From Heliocybe sulcata (lineage: Eukaryota; Basidiomycota; Agaricomycetes; Gloeophyllales; Gloeophyllaceae): a stretch of DNA of 64,000 nt. Below the pieces are notes generated by a model. The model saw only the letters and a program-made list of their open reading frames with translations, was not told the DNA's origin and ran no database searches. Positions 5,582-27,900 of this stretch are shown here, one piece after another (within the stretch, counting starts at the first letter, position 1; every line of letters starts with the position of its first letter). The DNA is taken from the NCBI GenBank assembly GCA_004369045.1, contig ML213528.1:41782-105781 (forward strand). Reading direction: 5' to 3'. A program made the translations under genes and the position numbers.

Positions 5582-8044
5582 ATGGATAGGATAGCATGGA
5601 TAGCCGCTCTTCGAAGGGCGCCCGCAGACCCGTGGACCATCAAGCAATCTCTCTCCCAAGTACAAGACCAGCCGACTTTGGGACCTGACGGGCAGGCCAT
5701 GTCCCAGGATCAGCTGGCGGACTGGGTTGTGAGAGAGTCTGCAGACATATTCAAGCACAGGTCGGACAGATTACTTTGTGCGAATGTGGACATCAGTTCC
5801 AGGACGACTTGCCGCAGCCATGGTACCAAGACTTGCAGCAATTGCAAGCTCGTCTCGTATTGCTCTCAAGTATGTGACAGCATCTATTATTATACACGTC
5901 ATTTACATCCCTGGTAGGAATGTCAGCGAAAACATTGGCGCGTACATAAACGCGGTTTGCTTTATTTTACGGCCGTCGTCTTCAATACTCTGACCGTAAA
6001 CCTTGCAGATTGCAAAGACTCCTTGATGTCGAATGACTGGCGAACAGCTTGGGAGCGGGAGAACCGAAGTCCAGCATGGATGGATCCTTCTTTTGGACCC
6101 CTGAAGCCTGACCCATTCATGCTCGGCCTTCACTTGTATCTATAATCATTGCACGACTCGCAGCTTGCGCTGAAATTCGCTCGCAGATGGGGCAACATCC
6201 CTGCCATGGACCTGTTCAATCTTGATAACAACGAGAAAGATCATTCGGCCGATCTTTCCCTGGCTTGCGTCGGTAAGTCGTCACTCCCGAAGCCTTCGTA
6301 TCTTCCTTCACGCGCTTCAATAATGATAGCATCCGGAGATTTCCGCCACGTCGTTCGGAGCGTGAACGCACTCCCAGACGACTACACCGGCAAGCTCACC
6401 ATCATGCTGAACGACCGCGACCACGTCATTTCGATGCGCAACTTGGCGCTAATATGTTTGCTCGGGACAATCGAGGACGAGGTTGTCGCTGCCGAGCTCG
6501 CCCTCCACTTCTGGTACTCTGTTTTCCTCCCGATCGAATATCAGCTGCGCATCTTAGTCGCGCTGACACCGCTTGTGGAACAACTCTTACTCGCGCCGTC
6601 GGCATGCAAGATCGAGTTGGGAAGTCGTTCCTCGCTCTACTGCGACGCGCCTCCCCAGTTGGGCAAGCTCATGCTGGCGATGCTCAAATCGACCTACTCA
6701 ACGTCGCACGCCAGTGAAGAGTACAAGCGTATCCGGTGCATACCCTCAATCATCTCCATCGAACACTTCTCTGATGCAGCTCGGATATCTTCCTCAGATG
6801 CGCTCCATCTCGAAAAGATTTCTACGACCGCGCCTACTGCAACGTCGAACCCGCGCACCGGGTTGCATTACAAGAATTTCGTCTCTTCGGCTTGGTAGTC
6901 CCGTTCGGTGCTCTCAACGCCCACTTCAACGTCCCCAACCGATCGCTCTTCTCGCCGACCGGGTCATGGCTGCTGAACGACCATGTCACCCCTCTCGAGT
7001 CCTGGGAGTAAGTATCCATAAGACATATTCGTCAAAACCATCTTATGACATATATCCAAGCTTGAAATCCGTCGTAGCAGCCGGAACAGCACACGGTGCC
7101 CAGCGCGCCGATATCTTCGGCTGTCTCTACTTCTTCCTCACCGACGAACTCCGCACCTTCGCCCGCCGGCTCCGCCAATTCCGCACCACCTTCCACGTCT
7201 ACAACGAGGACGCCAGCGATCTTGCTGAGCGGCTGAAAGCCGGCGGTCTCAGGGCATCTGGCCTGCCGCCCTCAACGCGCTTCGATCGTATTGAGGTCTC
7301 CAACATCATGGACGCAGAGTACGTCGGTATACCCCGAGTTTTGGAGAACTGGGCGTCTCGCCTCCGGGCGAGCAAGGACGCGGTTCTCGTAGGCTACTTT
7401 ATGAACTGGCGCGCTCGGCAGGAGGGAGCGGATCCGTTCTCAGCCGGGGACCGCGTGACGGACCGTATAATGGCGCGTCTGCGCAAGGACAACCGAGCGA
7501 GTTTCTTTCTATACTCCGAAGGCCCTTCGCTGACCTTCTATTAAGATGCGTAAGCCGAGTCCGCAAGGTATGACGCTCTTGCCGTATGTCACTACATAGA
7601 CACTAATCCTTCCATTTGGTAAAGATATGTTGCGGGGCGACATACGCAGTCGGATGATCGTTCAGTATATGAAATGCGCAGAGCCCGTGCACGAGAACTG
7701 GACGGCGTTCAAGAAGTACCTAAAGGCTCAGAGTATTGACGAGACACTCCGGCGCCTAAGCCTCCGAATGAAAGATAGGCACACCGTAGTTCCCCACGTA
7801 AGTGCCTTGTCTTCACTCGGACACCTGCCACATAGTACTCATGGGCGGCAGCGTAATTTTGCTCCGTTGGACGGACCCCCAAATGCATTACCGGCTTTCG
7901 CAGACGAAGACAGCTGGTACTTGCACGTGCGTTCCTCTAGATCTCGTCGGTGAATGAGTGCTTCTACTGATGTGCTTTACGCGCTAGGTGTATCTCGGAG
8001 GGTTGGCCTGGTCGGAGCGTTATGTGGAGATTGCGCGGCAGTAA
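5582..8044 (+). CDS. MYND zinc finger plus DUF4470 protein, copy A
   Basis: Eleven exons give a 638-aa product: 5582-5869, 5918-5954, 6009-6135, 6187-6272, 6330-6735, 6798-7007, 7061-7496, 7546-7567, 7625-7797, 7852-7926 and 7988-8044. All phases agree. The MYND finger runs LLCANV...TCSNCKLVSYCSQ|ECQRKHWRVHKRDCKDS, split by two introns and keeping the spaced Cys/His ligands. A DUF4470 region follows (WGNIPAMDLFNL, then LPDDYTGKLTIMLNDRD). A long conserved domain comes next, with GCLYFFLTDELRTFARRLR. The tail reads WYLHVYLGGLAWSERYVE. MYND fingers usually bind proline-rich partner peptides; the role here is unknown. The intron at 7497-7545 starts with GC rather than GT. Copy B at 22374-24841 is an inverted paralogue with the same intron positions. 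Confidence 0.85.
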
Positions 8045-14958: not shown

Positions 14959-15072
14959 TCAGGCAATGACACAGTACGAGAACGCGCCCTTGCCCGAAGA
15001 CTCCTCCTCAACGGGGACTTGCACGTCCTCGATGTCCTCAAAGGCGATAACAATGGTGTTGATGGAGTCCAT
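14959..15072 (-). CDS. Mating-pheromone precursor (farnesylated CaaX peptide)
   Basis: This small intronless gene has 38 codons and encodes 37 aa. It starts MDSINTIVIAFEDIEDVQ, continues with an acidic VPVEEESSG stretch and ends GAFSYCVIA, directly before TGA. This matches basidiomycete B-locus lipopeptide pheromone precursors: an MD(S/T) start, an acidic pro-region, a Gly/Ser-containing mature part and a C-terminal CaaX box. In that family the Cys (residue 34) is farnesylated, the last three residues are removed and the C-terminus is methylated. N-terminal cleavage then releases a peptide of about 10-14 residues, here probably within the EEESS stretch. The peptide signals to a Ste3-type receptor of a compatible partner. 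A TATATAAG box lies at 15202-15209, 130 nt upstream. No clear receptor gene was found beside it. Confidence 0.8.
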   Translation of the reverse strand: MDSINTIVIAFEDIEDVQVPVEEESSGKGAFSYCVIA

Positions 15073-15945
15073 TTCTTCACTGAGCGTAGAGCGTAAGAAC
15101 AGAGAGAGGTGCTTTCGCTAGAGTGAAGTAGAGCGAAGACGAAGGTGCTTTGGCTCGAGAACTGGAACTCGCTTGGTGGAGTCCTGGCCTCTTGGCTCCT
15201 CTTATATATGCGACAACAAGTCCGTATCCAAATGTCCTTCTCGGATGCCACAATGTCTCTTCCTGTGCGCCTACCTACCCAGGACGTCAACAGCACAATA
15301 GCGCCATGCTATTGTCCCAACCGTATCGGAGGCCATTCCGAAGCCAGCCTGACATCGCGTCTATAAACAGCATTCCATTAGCACAGCTCAGTCACAGGCG
15401 TAGCACAAACAATAGAGGAGGCCTGTGTGATGGCTTCGGCCAGGACAATAACGCCAGGTACGCATTTCGGGAACGAGGCGCCCACAACGCTCGGGCGGGC
15501 CTCCGGGGTTGCTATATTTGGATATGGTCCTGACAATTGCGGTAATCGCTCCGGGAGCCGCGACTGTGTATTGTGGAAATGCGCAATATACAAAGTCGCG
15601 ACGCGTCGTCTTGGAGAAGACGGTGGCGATGAGCGGACGGGAACAATATTCATCGCTGCCATACTGAAGATGCATCGTCAGCCGGCGGGATTCCAGGACG
15701 CTCAACAATAACATGGCGAGTCTTGCTTGCGATGCTTCGGACCCGAAGGGATCTTGACCGTCTCTGATTGATCATATCGCGGAACATATACCGCTCTGCC
15801 CTAAATCACCGCGGGACCCGTACCAGGGTGGTAGGCGGGAAATCATGATCATGCGTCTAGAATATGGTAAGCCATGCATCCCAAAAATACTTACTCGTCT
15901 TCCGGAGTTGACCCGAGGACCATGTGCGATAGTATACTTTCAGTT
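15073..15945. other. Region upstream of the pheromone gene
   Basis: Apart from the TATA box, no gene is established. Minus-strand frames at 15714-15378 contain no motif I recognise. Confidence 0.3.
15202..15209 (-). promoter_or_regulatory. TATA box of the pheromone gene
   Basis: TATATAAG, read on the minus strand, lies 130 nt upstream of the pheromone ATG. This is a plausible distance for a fungal core promoter. Confidence 0.45.
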
Positions 15946-22373: not shown

Positions 22374-24841
22374 TTACTGCCTCGAAAACTCAACATAACG
22401 CTCTGACCACGTCAAGCTTCCCAGATGGACCTATAGAAAGATATGCGTGAGCAGACGCTTCAACGAAGCTAGGAACAGACGCACATTCAGGTACCAACTC
22501 GCGTCGTCGGGGAAATCGGGCAAGGCATTCGCAGCTCCATCCAAGGGTGCCATATTACGCTATCGCGGGATTAATATTTCGCAGATTATATAAGGAATAA
22601 CCTCACATGAGGAAGCACTGTGTGCCGAGCCTTCATCTGGAGTTTTAGGGTCTTGAGACTCCGATCGATCCCCTGAGCCTTCAGGAACTTGCTGAAGGCA
22701 GGCGCATTGTCGTAGATTGGTGCAAGGGAAGCTATCCCGGACAAGAGAGAGCTGCTTATGTTTCCCTGTAATACTTCTGGATATACGTGTCAGCATAGGT
22801 ACTAGCAGTGTCGAGCTTCGTGGGTGCTAATAGCGGACCTACCTTGCGCACTAGGCATCCGGACCTGAAGTCGCGTCAGCTAAGCCTGACGTCCAGAGAA
22901 TGTGTGAAACACACCCTATGACTCTCCAGCAGCCGCTTCGTAAGCCTCGTCACAACGTGTTCACCCGCTGATACAGGGTCTCCTCCTTTCTGATGCTTCG
23001 TCCAATTCATGAAGTATCCGGTCAGAGTAGCGGTCTTATTTTGCCTTAAGAGTGGGCTCCAGTCCTCCAAGACGCGCTGAATACCAACGTATTCCACGTC
23101 CATGATGTTGGAGACATCAATCCGGTCGAAGTGTACAGACGCTGGGATCCCAGAACGCGCAAGAGCGCCGGCTTTCAAGTTGTCTGAAAGGTCGCGAACG
23201 TCGTCGTTATAGACATGGAAGTTGACTTTGAACCGGCGCAAGCGTCGAGCAAACGTGCGAAGCTCATCTGTGAGAAAGAAATAAAGGCAACCATAGAGAT
23301 CTGCACGCTGTGCACCATGACGCTTGCCGGCCTCAAGAACCGATTTCAATCTAGCATAGTCCGTCGATACGTGCAGCACCGAGAGCAGTATGAAACAGAC
23401 TCACTCCCAGCCGTGCAGAGGTGTTGTATTATCATCCTGAAGCCATTCCCCCTCCGCCGAGAAGAGAGACAGGTTGGCACAATTGAAGTGGCGATGAGCG
23501 GAACCGAAGGGCAGAACCACGCCAAAAATACGAAATTCCCGTATGGCTTCGCGGTGAGCTGGTTCAAGCTCGCAATAAGCACGATGAAGGTAATCCTTCC
23601 TCCTGCGTGCAAATCTTGAATGAACAAATGAAGAATGAGACCGGAAGTTCTCCAGAAACGGTGGAAACACATACTGCACCGATCTGTAATTTGACAAAGC
23701 CTCCCCACTTTGATAGCGCTGTCTGAATGTAGACAGTAGAAAACCGATTACGCTGCGAGGTATGTCACAGGACAAGGACGAGTTATCGCCCAGAGAGAAC
23801 CGACGCTGCGGCGGGTGGGAAGCCAGCTTCTGAATGAATGGCATGATGGCGTGCGCGGTACGAGCGTAATATTCCGCTGGAAGAATGACCGAGTACCAGT
23901 AGTGGAGAGCAAGCTCGGCACCGAGAACTTCATCGTCGATAGTACCAAGCAGGATTAACAGGACAATATTGCGAGCGACAACGTGGGGATCACAGTCATT
24001 GAGGAGAATGGTGAGCTCGCCGCTATAGTCATCGGGGAGTTTGTTCACGGTACGGACCACGTTCCTAAGATCGCCAGATGCTGGAAACAAGTCGTACCGT
24101 GTCATGCGCCGTGAAACATGTGGACTTACCGATGCAAGCGAGAGCAAGATCTACCGAGTGATTCCCTTCGTTCCTATCAAGGTTTATAAGGTCCATAGCT
24201 GGCGTGTTTCCCCAGCTGCGTAGAAGGATATTAGTATAGATGCGGAAAGACGTATAAGAGGTGCTACAGTTGGTGCCCCAAGGTAAGCGGATCGAGGTGA
24301 TCATCATCTTCTCTTATGAAAGCAGGAGCTCGACGCTCGCGCTCCCAATCAGGCTTCCAATCACTTCTCATCAGTTCGTCTTTGCAATCTACCGAAGTCT
24401 GGTTAGTGTAATGGTCCGCTCTACAGCATGAGTAGATACCTGTCTTATGCATCGACCAATGCGCCTTCTGACATTCCTGCACGATAGAACGGTTAACTGC
24501 ATAAACCACGGACCCACATAGACGCGCACCTTGGAACAATACGAGACAAGTCTACAGTTAGCGCACGCCATGTTCCCATCGTTGCGACAATTTCTCCCAC
24601 TGCCGGGGTCGACATTCGCGCAGAGCAGTCTATCCGACCTCAACTTGAGCACCTCCGCCGTCGCTCTGGCAATCCGTTCGTCCAGCTGACCCTGAGGCAT
24701 GGGCGATGTCCCACGACTCAAGGGCGGCTGGTTAGCTGACTGCGAGAACCGCGAGGATGAACCGGCTCTTGCGGAGGGACGGCCGAAGTCGAACGTCGGT
24801 GCTTCTTGATCCGAGTCATCTTCCTCAAGAGCCGTCATCAT
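22374..24841 (-). CDS. MYND zinc finger plus DUF4470 protein, copy B
   Basis: This is the inverted paralogue of copy A. The start was taken at 24841 (MMTALEEDDSDQ), giving a head close in length to copy A; M at 24916 is an alternative. The MYND finger is LLCANVDPGSGRNCRNDG, then ACANCRLVSYCSK|ECQKAHWSMHKTDCKDE. Its middle exon (24476-24440) is 37 nt, as in A. The next exon starts at 24388. Downstream are WGNTPAMDLINLDRNEG, LPDDYSGELTILLNDCDP and GCLYFFLTDELRTFARRLR. A 60-nt intron (GTATGT donor) near 23640-23700 keeps the frame open if retained. The 22-nt micro-exon reads VRMPSAQ. The tail is WYLNVHLGSLTWSERYVEFS, with a stop at 22374-22376. The head adds an acidic, Ser/Pro-rich segment not seen in A. 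Confidence 0.85.
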
Positions 24842-27030
24842 TGCCAGAGCCTCCAGGGGATGCACGGGCCGAGAAAGCAACTGCGAAAAACGGAATGCAA
24901 GGTACGCCAGAGACATCTTCAACTGCGTGCAGGAGAGGATGAGAATGCGCCCGTATTTATTACTCTGAAGAGGGTGGCCTCGTGTTTGCCGCACGGTTGG
25001 CCTGCCCCCGAAATACATTACTGAATGCTCTTCTCTTCAGGAATTGACGTCTGGGCCTCAATAAAAGGTATGTGCATTGAATACAATGAGGAAGAACAAC
25101 GTCACCTCTCTCGTCATCCACGCATCCTCGCCGCTCGGATGAGCGACCCTTCTGAAATGGAGAAGCTGTGCACAACAATCCTATCCTATCCGATGCTGTG
25201 AATCCTGTTCATGGAAGCATGGCTTGCATTAGCCTCTAATAGCCATGCCTGCAAGCTCCAGCCGCCTTGCACGGTCATTAATGCACGCGAATTGGCCACT
25301 TACCAGAATGAACACTTCGATTGCCGCTTGAGAGAAAAGTTATACAACAATTGACACCAAGGGCAAGGGGCGAAGGTCTGCCTCATTGACATATCTACCT
25401 GCTGTAACGCCTTGCCTTTTTCCGGAACCTGATTAACTCTGAGTCAGGCATATAGGGATCCCGTAAAAGGACTGGAACACACAAAATACGTCTGTTCCGC
25501 ACACCATTAGCACGCAGATAGGGATCACGGATGGTTCGTCACTCACTAGCACTCGATGAATCAAATTGGCGAAATGTGTACCAAGGTAAGTCGCATAGAT
25601 GAGGCCCCATAGATACGGAGGTCAAAAGGCGCAGCACCATCAATAGACGTGGTCAACGGAACATTCAAATTCCTTAGTTCCGGCTTAAAAATTTCATATT
25701 ATCGATGAAGTGAGCTCTCAAGAACAGTCGAACCTGCACGGGATATCGGATGCAAACTTGACCAATGATGACAAACAACGGCCAGCCTAAACAGACGTGC
25801 ATTGAGCCCTAAATGAGACGAGTATAACCCCGGGAGGCGGGTCTCCTTGTCAACAATAATAGGTAGCGAATGACTGGTCACGTACCCGCAGACTGTCTCT
25901 GGTAAGGAGATAGTGGCAGACACAAGGAACCACAGAGACCTTTAACGATCACCAGTATGACCTTCCTGTCACCACTAGACGTCTGATAAGCTTGGCAGCA
26001 GTCGACCTTCTAGAACATTGAGAAGTCTGACTCACAGAGACGAGCGACGATCGTAGACGAGAGTCGGCGGCACGCCAGTACACGTATTACTCTATTGCAT
26101 ATATCCAGGAGAGGTCCAAGTGGATCTGCTTCTTAGCGGTGACAAAACGCACGAACAATCGGCACTCCCCAACAATGATGGACTCACTAACAAAGGCCAG
26201 CATGCAGCATCGCTACGACACTGTGAGCCCTCGAAGTCAGCCCAACTGCCGATCGTATGATTCCGGGCGTGGATAACATTAGGTAACAGTGGCAAGCGTC
26301 AATATACGAAGGCCATCCTGAGCAGGGACGCCTGCATACTTGCGCATACAAAAAACATTTTTCTTGTCAGCAATGACCCGGGACAGGACCCATTCAGCAC
26401 GCACCAGGAGATGATCTCCAGTCGCGGAGTGAGGCAGGCTAGACATGCCACGAAGTAGAAGGCACCAACGTAGATACTGGCATTCATGGCAGCGAACGTA
26501 GTAAACGCGCCAGTAGGAACATTACTAGCCGGAAAGAGCGACACATTGGTCTCTCGAATCGTTCGAAAGGAAACCCAGGGAGAGCCTCGAGGCGAGCGAA
26601 GATAAGTTACTTGGGATGACACATACGTGCATCTGTCAAGACAGCATATCTGGCCTCGTCAACGAGACACTCCCAGAGCTATACTGTGAAGAGTATGGTA
26701 TGGCATCGTGTGGAGGGCGTTTTCAAAGAACGACTTGAAACAACTTACGCGACATTTGAAAAGAGGAATGCGAGCTATGCAGAAATGTAGGAGCAAACTG
26801 GTCGAGAGATTGTGTATACCGTGGTACCTGAAGCAGCACTGAATCCGTTTTGAGGAGTCTGGGAATGATAACATGGACAGGATGCGACAATTTGGCTGGC
26901 AAGAAGGCAGAAAGTATAAGGGTAGGACAGAGGATATAAGAGCTGCCTAAACCCGTTTCCCCGCGTTTCCTCTGCCGAGCAGGCAACATTTAAGAGAATG
27001 GCTCGAGACAGACAGAACCGCTCCACGCAC
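24842..27030. other. Gene-poor region
   Basis: No assignable gene. A minus-strand frame at 26622-26299 (107 codons) contains a hydrophobic stretch (ASIYVGAFYFVACLACL) but matches no family I know. The 3' end of the mitochondrial uS7 gene must lie somewhere in the right-hand part. Confidence 0.35.
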
Positions 27031-27683
27031 CTGTTCACCGTGGCCAACTTATGAATATCATTCCTATTCTTTATCACTGAGCTCGTTCCATCAATCACCG
27101 CAATCAGCTCCTTCGCCAGCCGCTCCTCCACCGACCGCCCAACCGGCCTCTTCTGCGCGGCCTTCCTAATCCACGAGATGGCATAGAATGTTCGCTGCTT
27201 CTCCGTGAGCGGTATTGGCCTGCTGATGACCTTTGCGCCCACTTTGCTCGAAGCTATACGCACGGCCGGCGACGCGATCTGGATGGCTTTCCGAAGGATG
27301 GGCAATGGCGGCGCACGCGTGTAGGCGTGGAGATAGAGTAGCGTCCGCGATGTTATCCGCTGGGCACGTTGGCGCTTGCCGTCCTTCATGAGCATTGAGG
27401 TGAAGTAATGGAGAAGTGGGTCCTGCGCTGGAGGAACATTGATGAGAGGTACGCCAGAAGACGTGGTAGCGGGTGTGACAGTTGGGGACGCGGATGTCGA
27501 GGGCGTATCCGATGACGTGGGCATGAGACTGTCGCCGCCAAGCATCTCAATAAGTGTATCAGACATGTTTCGGAGAGCAGCCTTGTCGGACGCCGTCGCA
27601 TCTGGCAGCGGCGGTAAGCTTGCCATCGTGCGCGTGTGTCGGCGAGCGAGAGACGCTATCGGTGCCCTCAAGTGCGCCAGCAT
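27031..27683 (-). CDS. RSM7: Mitochondrial small-subunit ribosomal protein uS7m (main exon)
   Basis: This is a uS7-family protein of the mitochondrial ribosome, which binds the 3' major domain of small-subunit rRNA. The chosen start (27683) gives MLAHLRAPIASLARRHTRTM, a basic, acid-free targeting sequence; an upstream in-frame ATG at 27722 is possible. The uS7 domain reads PLLHYFTSMLMKDGKRQRAQ, then ILRKAIQIASPAVRIASSKV, GAKVISRPIPLTEKQRTFYA, ISWIRKAAQKR and ERLAKELIAVIDG...VIKNRNDIHKLATVN. The exon ends at a GTGCGT donor (27030-27029). The short C-terminal exon lies downstream on the minus strand and was not fixed; one candidate begins after the CATAG near 26788. It is head to head with SPP2. 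Confidence 0.85.
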
Positions 27684-27900
27684 ATCTATATTTGAGATAT
27701 ATGAATGAGTATCAGCTTCCAAGTCGGACAGGACATGCCCCGTTTTTATGTTTGAGTTGAGGAAGAGAGACTAGTATGCAAAGCTCAGAAAGCAGAAATA
27801 AAGAAAATGCGAGAAATTCTAATTTGACAAATTACATAATATTTTGCGGAGATATGAATTGACTGCTGTGGCCTCTTTGCCACCTACGCCACCTACCGTC

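What the first reader, a model, noticed from the sequence alone, without database searches (positions are those of the whole stretch)
14959..15072. Unflagged mating-pheromone precursor gene (CVIA CaaX peptide)
A 37-aa frame, too short for usual gene calls, has every trait of a basidiomycete B-locus lipopeptide pheromone: an MDS start, an acidic pro-part VPVEEESSG, a mature part SGKGAFSYC and a CVIA CaaX end followed directly by a stop. A TATA box sits 130 nt upstream. If true, this marks a B mating-type or B-like pheromone locus. It may also be an orphan pheromone gene, as no complete Ste3 receptor is seen within the window.
Basis: partly seen in the sequence, partly recalled or inferred. Interest (0 to 1): 0.85.

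Follow-up and report, generated by a model that had tools for sequence, protein, structure and literature searches.

The report
Unlinked mushroom lipopeptide pheromone-precursor gene
This short, easily missed gene very probably makes a lipid-tailed peptide pheromone in a brown-rot mushroom, very probably Heliocybe sulcata; it belongs to a scattered gene family already known from other mushrooms and lies far from the mating-type receptor genes, so it is real but mostly ordinary, apart from an unusual hormone sequence.

Summary
The 37-aa frame is real, at window 14959-15072, but on the MINUS strand: MDSINTIVIAFEDIEDVQVPVEEESSGKGAFSYCVIA*. Motifs alone are weak evidence (6 of 60 shuffled windows gave one such ORF; the real window has two); homology settles it. 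The genome, very probably Heliocybe sulcata (neighbouring S7 protein 100% identical over the 69% aligned), holds short paralogues on C6, C13 and C35 (two), plus a long one and a start-less copy. A family profile found 53 proteins at E<=1, three named as pheromones by a source. [quoted passage not shown] The 14 STE3 matches lie on C11 and C16, none on the window's contig C26; the mip-linked HD gene is on C1. So it does not mark a B locus: it is a dispersed pheromone-like precursor, a new member of a known kind. Less ordinary: K and F in its mature part where 0 of 51 homologues have them, and seven [T/A]ATTGT sites in its promoter against about 0.4 expected. Expression, processing and receptor are untested.

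The parts
14959..15072 (-). pheromone-precursor ORF, 37 aa, MDSINTIVIAFEDIEDVQVPVEEESSGKGAFSYCVIA*
   Evidence: homologues
14962..14973 (-). CaaX box CVIA (predicted farnesylation signal)
   Evidence: the 51 of 53 homologues that end in a C-x-x-x box have C at -4, V at -3 and A at -1
14971..15003 (-). predicted mature peptide region, about ESSGKGAFSYC (exact N-terminal cleavage site inferred, not shown)
   Evidence: position of the acidic E/S boundary against the homologues
15201..15208 (-). TATA box TATATAAG, about 136 nt before the ATG
   Evidence: TATA at -105 to -116 in the four short paralogues on C6, C35 (two) and C13; none by the same pattern before the C11 gene
15294..15648 (.). cluster of seven [T/A]ATTGT sites in the promoter (HMG-box-like core, label recalled; possible regulatory element)
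   Evidence: the densest 600-bp stretch of the window starts at 15201, 8 sites; stretches away from it have at most 3; 0 of 1000 shuffles reach 7

Best explanation
A functional gene, with an uninterrupted coding frame, for a farnesylated peptide pheromone of the dispersed non-mating-type pheromone-like family of Agaricomycetes. Predicted route (inferred from general knowledge of the family): the 37-aa precursor is farnesylated at Cys34, loses VIA and is carboxymethylated; the acidic pro-part is cut off near EEE/SS; the peptide of about 9-11 residues, (ES)SGKGAFSYC, is exported and sensed by one of the cell's own STE3-type receptors encoded elsewhere (C11 or C16). Being unlinked to the receptors, it would be inherited with any receptor allele and so would act as a self-made or general signal rather than as a mating-type determinant. 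Shown: ORF, homology, dispersal, no STE3 match on the contig. Inferred: expression, processing, export, receptor, lack of mating-type role.
For: Short paralogues alignable from ATG to stop on C6, C35 (two) and C13 (A1); the C6 copy and this one match at E 0.001 and 0.002 with 46% identity. Outside homologues: 5 proteins at E<=10 among 7 candidates with A2, 53 at E<=1 among 855 candidates with A3, among them P0003 (37 aa, 16 of 37 identical) and three records that a source names as pheromones (Hebeloma P0012, Marasmiellus P0019, Laccaria P0041); P0017 carries PF08015. Reverse check: Hebeloma P0012 finds the window gene at E 8e-4. The C35/C13 copies look under purifying selection (dN/dS about 0.21, 0.07 and 0.08; the two C35 frames differ at 5 of 120 bases while their surroundings align at 74%). 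Similar promoter layout. STE3 matches only on C11 and C16. Published consensus GGGSGNGAYC (C. cinerea) and GGGSGNNAYC (L. [quoted passage not shown]
Against: The ORF itself matches no Pfam family (genome-wide PF08015 gives one sub-threshold match, the C11 gene, 19.5 bits against a cut-off of 22), though 52 of the 53 homologues carry no precomputed Pfam domain either. Its mature part is atypical: K at -10 and F at -7 occur in 0 of 51 homologues, A at -8 in 2 of 51. No classic ER/EH processing dipeptide. No transcript or strain data were available. The C11 pheromone's last nine mature residues are as close to it as those of the dispersed copies (5 of 9 positions each, my count on A1), so a mating-type origin is not excluded.
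Confidence: 0.82

Rival explanations
1. A mating-type (B) pheromone gene that has moved away from the receptor cluster but still activates a non-self B receptor, i.e. a true mating determinant at a second site.
For: Its mature part SGKGAFSYC departs from the conserved pheromone-like tail and shares the G-A-(F/M)-S-(Y/F)-C pattern with the C11 gene, which lies about 20 kb from an STE3 gene.
Against: Over the whole precursor it is closer to the dispersed copies (49% to C6, 43% to each of the C35/C13 copies, 35% to C11); it is at least about 188 kb from any STE3 match even if C26 joined the nearest contig end (arithmetic).
Confidence: 0.12
2. A decaying relic of the pheromone-like family, still open by chance.
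For: A copy without a start codon exists on C2; the window copy is the most divergent in the tail among the short dispersed copies.
Against: Intact frame from MD to CaaX, tail anchor residues (G-11, G-9, Y, C, V, A) kept, TATA box kept, densest ATTGT cluster of the window.
Confidence: 0.05
3. A chance ORF with pheromone-like motifs.
For: 6 of 60 shuffled windows hold one MD...CaaX ORF, and the window holds a second one without apparent homology to the family.
Against: Paralogues alignable over the whole length and outside homologues.
Confidence: 0.01

Closest known systems
[quoted passage not shown] passages and part 1 of 2 of the discussion seen)
   Same: Short precursor, CaaX end, glycine-rich tail ending in Y-C, copies scattered and without linkage to mating-type function.
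   Different: Tail reads SSGKGAFSYC instead of GGGSGNGAYC-like; K and F at positions where 0 of the 51 homologues collected here have them.
Pheromone precursors of Pycnoporus cinnabarinus (PMC4101180, passages seen)
   Different: Genomic places and sequences were not in the passages seen, so no direct comparison.
B-locus pheromone precursors, e.g. of Rhizopogon (PMC5473757, passages seen); in this genome the gene C11:857267 is the nearest candidate
   Same: MD start, acidic pro-part, CaaX end.
   Different: The Rhizopogon genes lie next to receptor genes and have diverse tails (table seen); the C11 gene lies about 20 kb from an STE3 gene; the window gene lies on a contig without STE3 match.
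Pheromone homologues away from the receptors in Amanita phalloides (PMC10598064, passages seen)
   Same: Two CaaX pheromone homologues located away from the receptor genes.
   Different: Sequences not seen.

Membership tests
Fungal lipopeptide (a-factor-like) pheromone precursor | short ORF ending in CaaX directly before the stop | tested here: met
   CVIA*
Fungal lipopeptide (a-factor-like) pheromone precursor | sequence homology to recognised precursors | tested here: met
   (three records named as pheromones by a source, one with PF08015)
Fungal lipopeptide (a-factor-like) pheromone precursor | match to Pfam PF08015 | tested here: not met
   no family up to E 10; but only 1 of 53 homologues (P0017) carries it in the precomputed column, so the model covers this branch poorly
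Fungal lipopeptide (a-factor-like) pheromone precursor | charged ER/EH-type processing motif 10-15 residues before CaaX | tested here: inconclusive
   acidic EEES present, no ER or EH dipeptide; in the 51 homologue tails position -14 is E or D in 48, followed by T, G, D, N, S or K in 44
Fungal lipopeptide (a-factor-like) pheromone precursor | farnesylation, processing, secretion, receptor activation | not testable with these tools
   needs experiment
Non-mating-type pheromone-like family | location unlinked to STE3 genes | tested here: met
   14 STE3 matches at E<=0.001, on C11 and C16, none on C26
Non-mating-type pheromone-like family | glycine-rich tail close to GGGSGNGAYC | tested here: inconclusive
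   G, G, Y, C kept; K-10, A-8, F-7 depart
Non-mating-type pheromone-like family | several dispersed paralogues in the genome | tested here: met
   C6, C35 x2, C13; plus a long copy on C13 and a start-less copy on C2
B mating-type locus pheromone | tight linkage to an STE3 receptor gene | tested here: not met
   nearest possible distance about 188 kb
B mating-type locus pheromone | allelic diversity between mating types | not testable with these tools
   only one genome held

The most novel reading that the evidence does not exclude
A dispersed pheromone-like gene that has changed its ligand: the charged and aromatic tail SGKGAFSYC has left the conserved GGSGGNAYC consensus to fit a different (B-type or non-mating) receptor. 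It would thus be a stage between the conserved pheromone-like peptides and diversifying mating pheromones, driven by an ATTGT-type HMG-box element shared by most of the pheromone genes but not by the receptor genes.
Probability: 0.15. Interest if true: 0.55.

Novelty: new member of a known kind. Interest (0 to 1): 0.3.

Why it matters
Such genes are easily lost: in Rhizopogon about half of the precursor genes were found only by a pattern script (passages), and a Trichaptum study dropped script hits distant from STE3 genes as false positives (passages), a filter that would discard a gene like this one. The function of non-mating-type STE3-like receptors, and whether they meet pheromones at all, is called unknown in print. 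This genome offers a compact set: five short dispersed precursors counting this one, one precursor near the receptor cluster and five STE3 genes, in which ligand-receptor pairing and autocrine signalling could be tested. No paper in the library searched held Heliocybe sulcata together with pheromone and mating.

Tried and rejected
B-locus marker: rejected, no STE3 match on C26. Linkage to the HD (A) locus: rejected, an HD match lies 2.3 kb from a Peptidase_M3 (mip-like) gene on C1 (C1:906.7-908.2 kb and 910.5 kb). The HD match on C16, 38 kb from an STE3 gene, first looked like HD-STE3 linkage, but no Peptidase_M3 match lies on C16, so I took it as a non-mating homeobox gene; I fetched 8 kb there and listed its ORFs but did not annotate them. 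Promoter motif as a general mating regulon: tested on the five STE3 promoters and not supported for [T/A]ATTGT (3 found against 2.0 expected, P=0.33) nor for ATTGTC (3 against 1.4, P=0.16); the variants [T/A]ATTGTC (3 against 0.61, P=0.024) and TATTGTC (2 against 0.32, P=0.041) are slightly in excess, out of six variants tried. The C6 paralogue has no [T/A]ATTGT. The motif was chosen after looking at the same promoters, and the C35a, C35b and C13 promoters are duplicates of one another, hence not independent. Literature for an ACAAT element in basidiomycete pheromone promoters: no paper held all six terms; a search with PRE/Prf1/Rop1 terms gave 12 papers of which I saw the listing only. Tail letters in papers: one search gave only papers that looked unrelated (4 of 5 listed), one paper, the Agaricus one. 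Double-unit precursors and Gloeophyllales mating: listings only. Pfam scans of 20 window ORFs showed no mating-related neighbour; most of these ORFs matched nothing.

Full report
What is there. The frame is present at the exact coordinates, on the minus strand: ATG at 15072, stop ending at 14959, MDSINTIVIAFEDIEDVQVPVEEESSGKGAFSYCVIA. A TATATAAG lies at 15208-15201, about 136 nt before the ATG. Motif content alone is not decisive: 6 of 60 dinucleotide shuffles of the window hold one ORF of 30-70 aa with MD start and CaaX end, and the real window holds two.

Where it is. The window is contig C26, bases 41782-105781 (contig length 376,863), of a 31.6-Mb genome in 51 contigs. The S7-type ribosomal protein encoded at 26775-27722 is 100% identical, over the 69% of the query that was aligned, to one of Heliocybe sulcata, followed by Neolentinus lepideus (75%) and Gloeophyllum trabeum (56%); Heliocybe sulcata belongs to the Agaricomycetes, order Gloeophyllales. 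The organism is thus very probably H. sulcata; this rests on one protein.

Relatives in the genome. Single-protein searches found short paralogues at C6:781451-781573 (MDAFTNTITSTTTSSEDIVIIAAPVEEENGGSGGNSYCTIA), C35:157766, C35:147072 and C13:564454 (MDFFTVLFSSPSTAEDDTTLSQPVSEESGGDGGNSYCVVA and near-identical). From the window's own sequence, the C6 match is E 0.001 and the C35/C13 matches are weak (E 0.06-0.1, C-terminal 26-27 residues); C6 links the two groups strongly (E 6e-7 to 3e-6). A longer frame of 87 aa with the tail EEGGDGGNSYCVIA is at C13:198858, and a copy without a start codon at C2:2063673, which may be a remnant or a spliced gene. The two C35 copies and the C13 copy are related also in their promoters, and their frames differ mostly at third positions (dN/dS about 0.21, 0.07, 0.08). 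A more distant precursor, MDAFDAVYILSESSVSEGETQTEPLVDSEHCGGGAMSFCVIS, is at C11:857267, about 20 kb from an STE3 gene; searched with its own sequence it finds only itself. Counts from such searches are lower bounds, as the tool states.

Relatives elsewhere. A profile of five copies found 5 proteins at E<=10 among 7 candidates; a profile of nine sequences (five of the seven family copies of this genome, the C11 gene, and three of those five hits) found 53 at E<=1 among 855 candidates. Three carry a pheromone name from a source: Hebeloma cylindrosporum P0012 (a UniRef name, cut off in the listing, beginning 'Fungal mating-type pherom'), P0019 ('Pheromone', Marasmiellus/Stygiomarasmius) and Laccaria amethystina P0041 ('lipopeptide pheromone with GPI-anchor, partial'); the other names shown are 'hypothetical' or 'uncharacterized', and many have none. 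Of the 53, 51 end in a C-x-x-x box (44 CVVA, 7 CVIA); the other two run past it. The commonest tail is (E/D)xGGSGGNAYCVVA. In reverse, the Hebeloma protein finds the window gene at E 8e-4 along with five other places in the genome.

What sets this copy apart. Against the 51 tails it keeps G at -11 and -9, Y at -5, C, V and A, but has K at -10 (0 of 51), A at -8 (2 of 51) and F at -7 (0 of 51). The mature peptide would be charged and more aromatic than its relatives. A caution: the 51 were gathered with a profile in which most rows have the common tail and with shared five-residue words, so sequences with an unusual tail are under-represented by design. Whether the difference changes receptor choice is unknown.

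Not a B locus. The 14 STE3 (PF02076) matches, which I group by place into five genes, are on C11 (about 798, 801, 832 and 837 kb) and C16 (132 kb). Even if contig ends were joined in the closest way, the distance to an STE3 gene would be about 188 kb. The HD match next to a Peptidase_M3 (mip-like) gene is on C1. PMC8305134 (passages, and part 1 of 2 of the discussion, seen) describes four precursors in Agaricus bisporus, three on chromosome 1 and one on chromosome 2, at least three of them with EST support, judged to have no mating-type function; three of the four mature peptides resemble the non-mating-type motifs of C. cinerea (GGGSGNGAYC) and L. bicolor (GGGSGNNAYC). PMC4101180 (passages) reports seven precursors in Pycnoporus, four of them of that similar kind; PMC10598064 (passages) two pheromone homologues away from the receptors in Amanita phalloides. 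In Trichaptum (PMC8970355, passages) the precursors kept lie in the receptor locus, but hits distant from STE3 had been removed.

Promoter. In the 600 bp upstream of the start, [T/A]ATTGT occurs 7 times for the window gene (shuffle mean 0.36; 0 of 1000 shuffles reach 7), 5 for C11, 3 for C35a, 4 for C13, 3 for C35b and 0 for C6. Scanning the window, the densest 600-bp stretch is this promoter (8 sites; stretches away from it at most 3); on the 80 kb of C11 held, the densest is the C11 pheromone promoter (5), followed by stretches with 4 around 799 kb and 796.5 kb. The five STE3 promoters are not enriched for it (3 against 2.0 expected). The core resembles HMG-box sites (recalled, not from a call). 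Post-hoc choice of the motif and non-independent copies weaken this; I offer it as a lead.

Mechanism. From the established route for CaaX pheromones (general knowledge): farnesylation at Cys34, removal of VIA, carboxymethylation, cut of the acidic pro-part, export, binding to an STE3-type receptor. Nothing of this was tested here. Since the gene is unlinked to any receptor, a self-acting or general signal is the most likely role; the Agaricus paper suggests as one possibility that its copies activate a receptor independently of mating.

Verdict. A real gene and a new member of a known kind.

Noticed in passing
proteins P0005, P0008, P0010, P0013, P0015, P0016 and others: At least 18 of the 53 homologues are double precursors with two pheromone units in a row (e.g. 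GGGSGGNAYCVVAHTT...GGGSGGNAYCVVA), two of them from Hebeloma cylindrosporum. How the inner CaaX-like box would be freed is unclear.
   Followed up: partly
G000:C16:93902-94009 and C16:131788 (loci L043, L045, L003): A homeobox (PF05920) match lies 38 kb from an STE3 gene on C16, while the mip-linked HD match is on C1; probably a non-mating homeobox gene, but its neighbours were not annotated.
   Followed up: partly
G000:C11:799200-800200 (L016, L017): A cluster of four ATTGTC sites lies between the first two STE3 genes of the C11 cluster; no ORF with a C-x-x-x end of 20-90 aa was listed beside it.
   Followed up: partly
G000:C13:198858-198962 (L038): An 87-aa frame without MD start but with the tail EEGGDGGNSYCVIA: an unusually long pheromone-like precursor.
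   Followed up: no
window 6149-6898 (+) and 23401-24147 (-): Two ORFs with DUF4470 (PF14737) in the same window.
   Followed up: no
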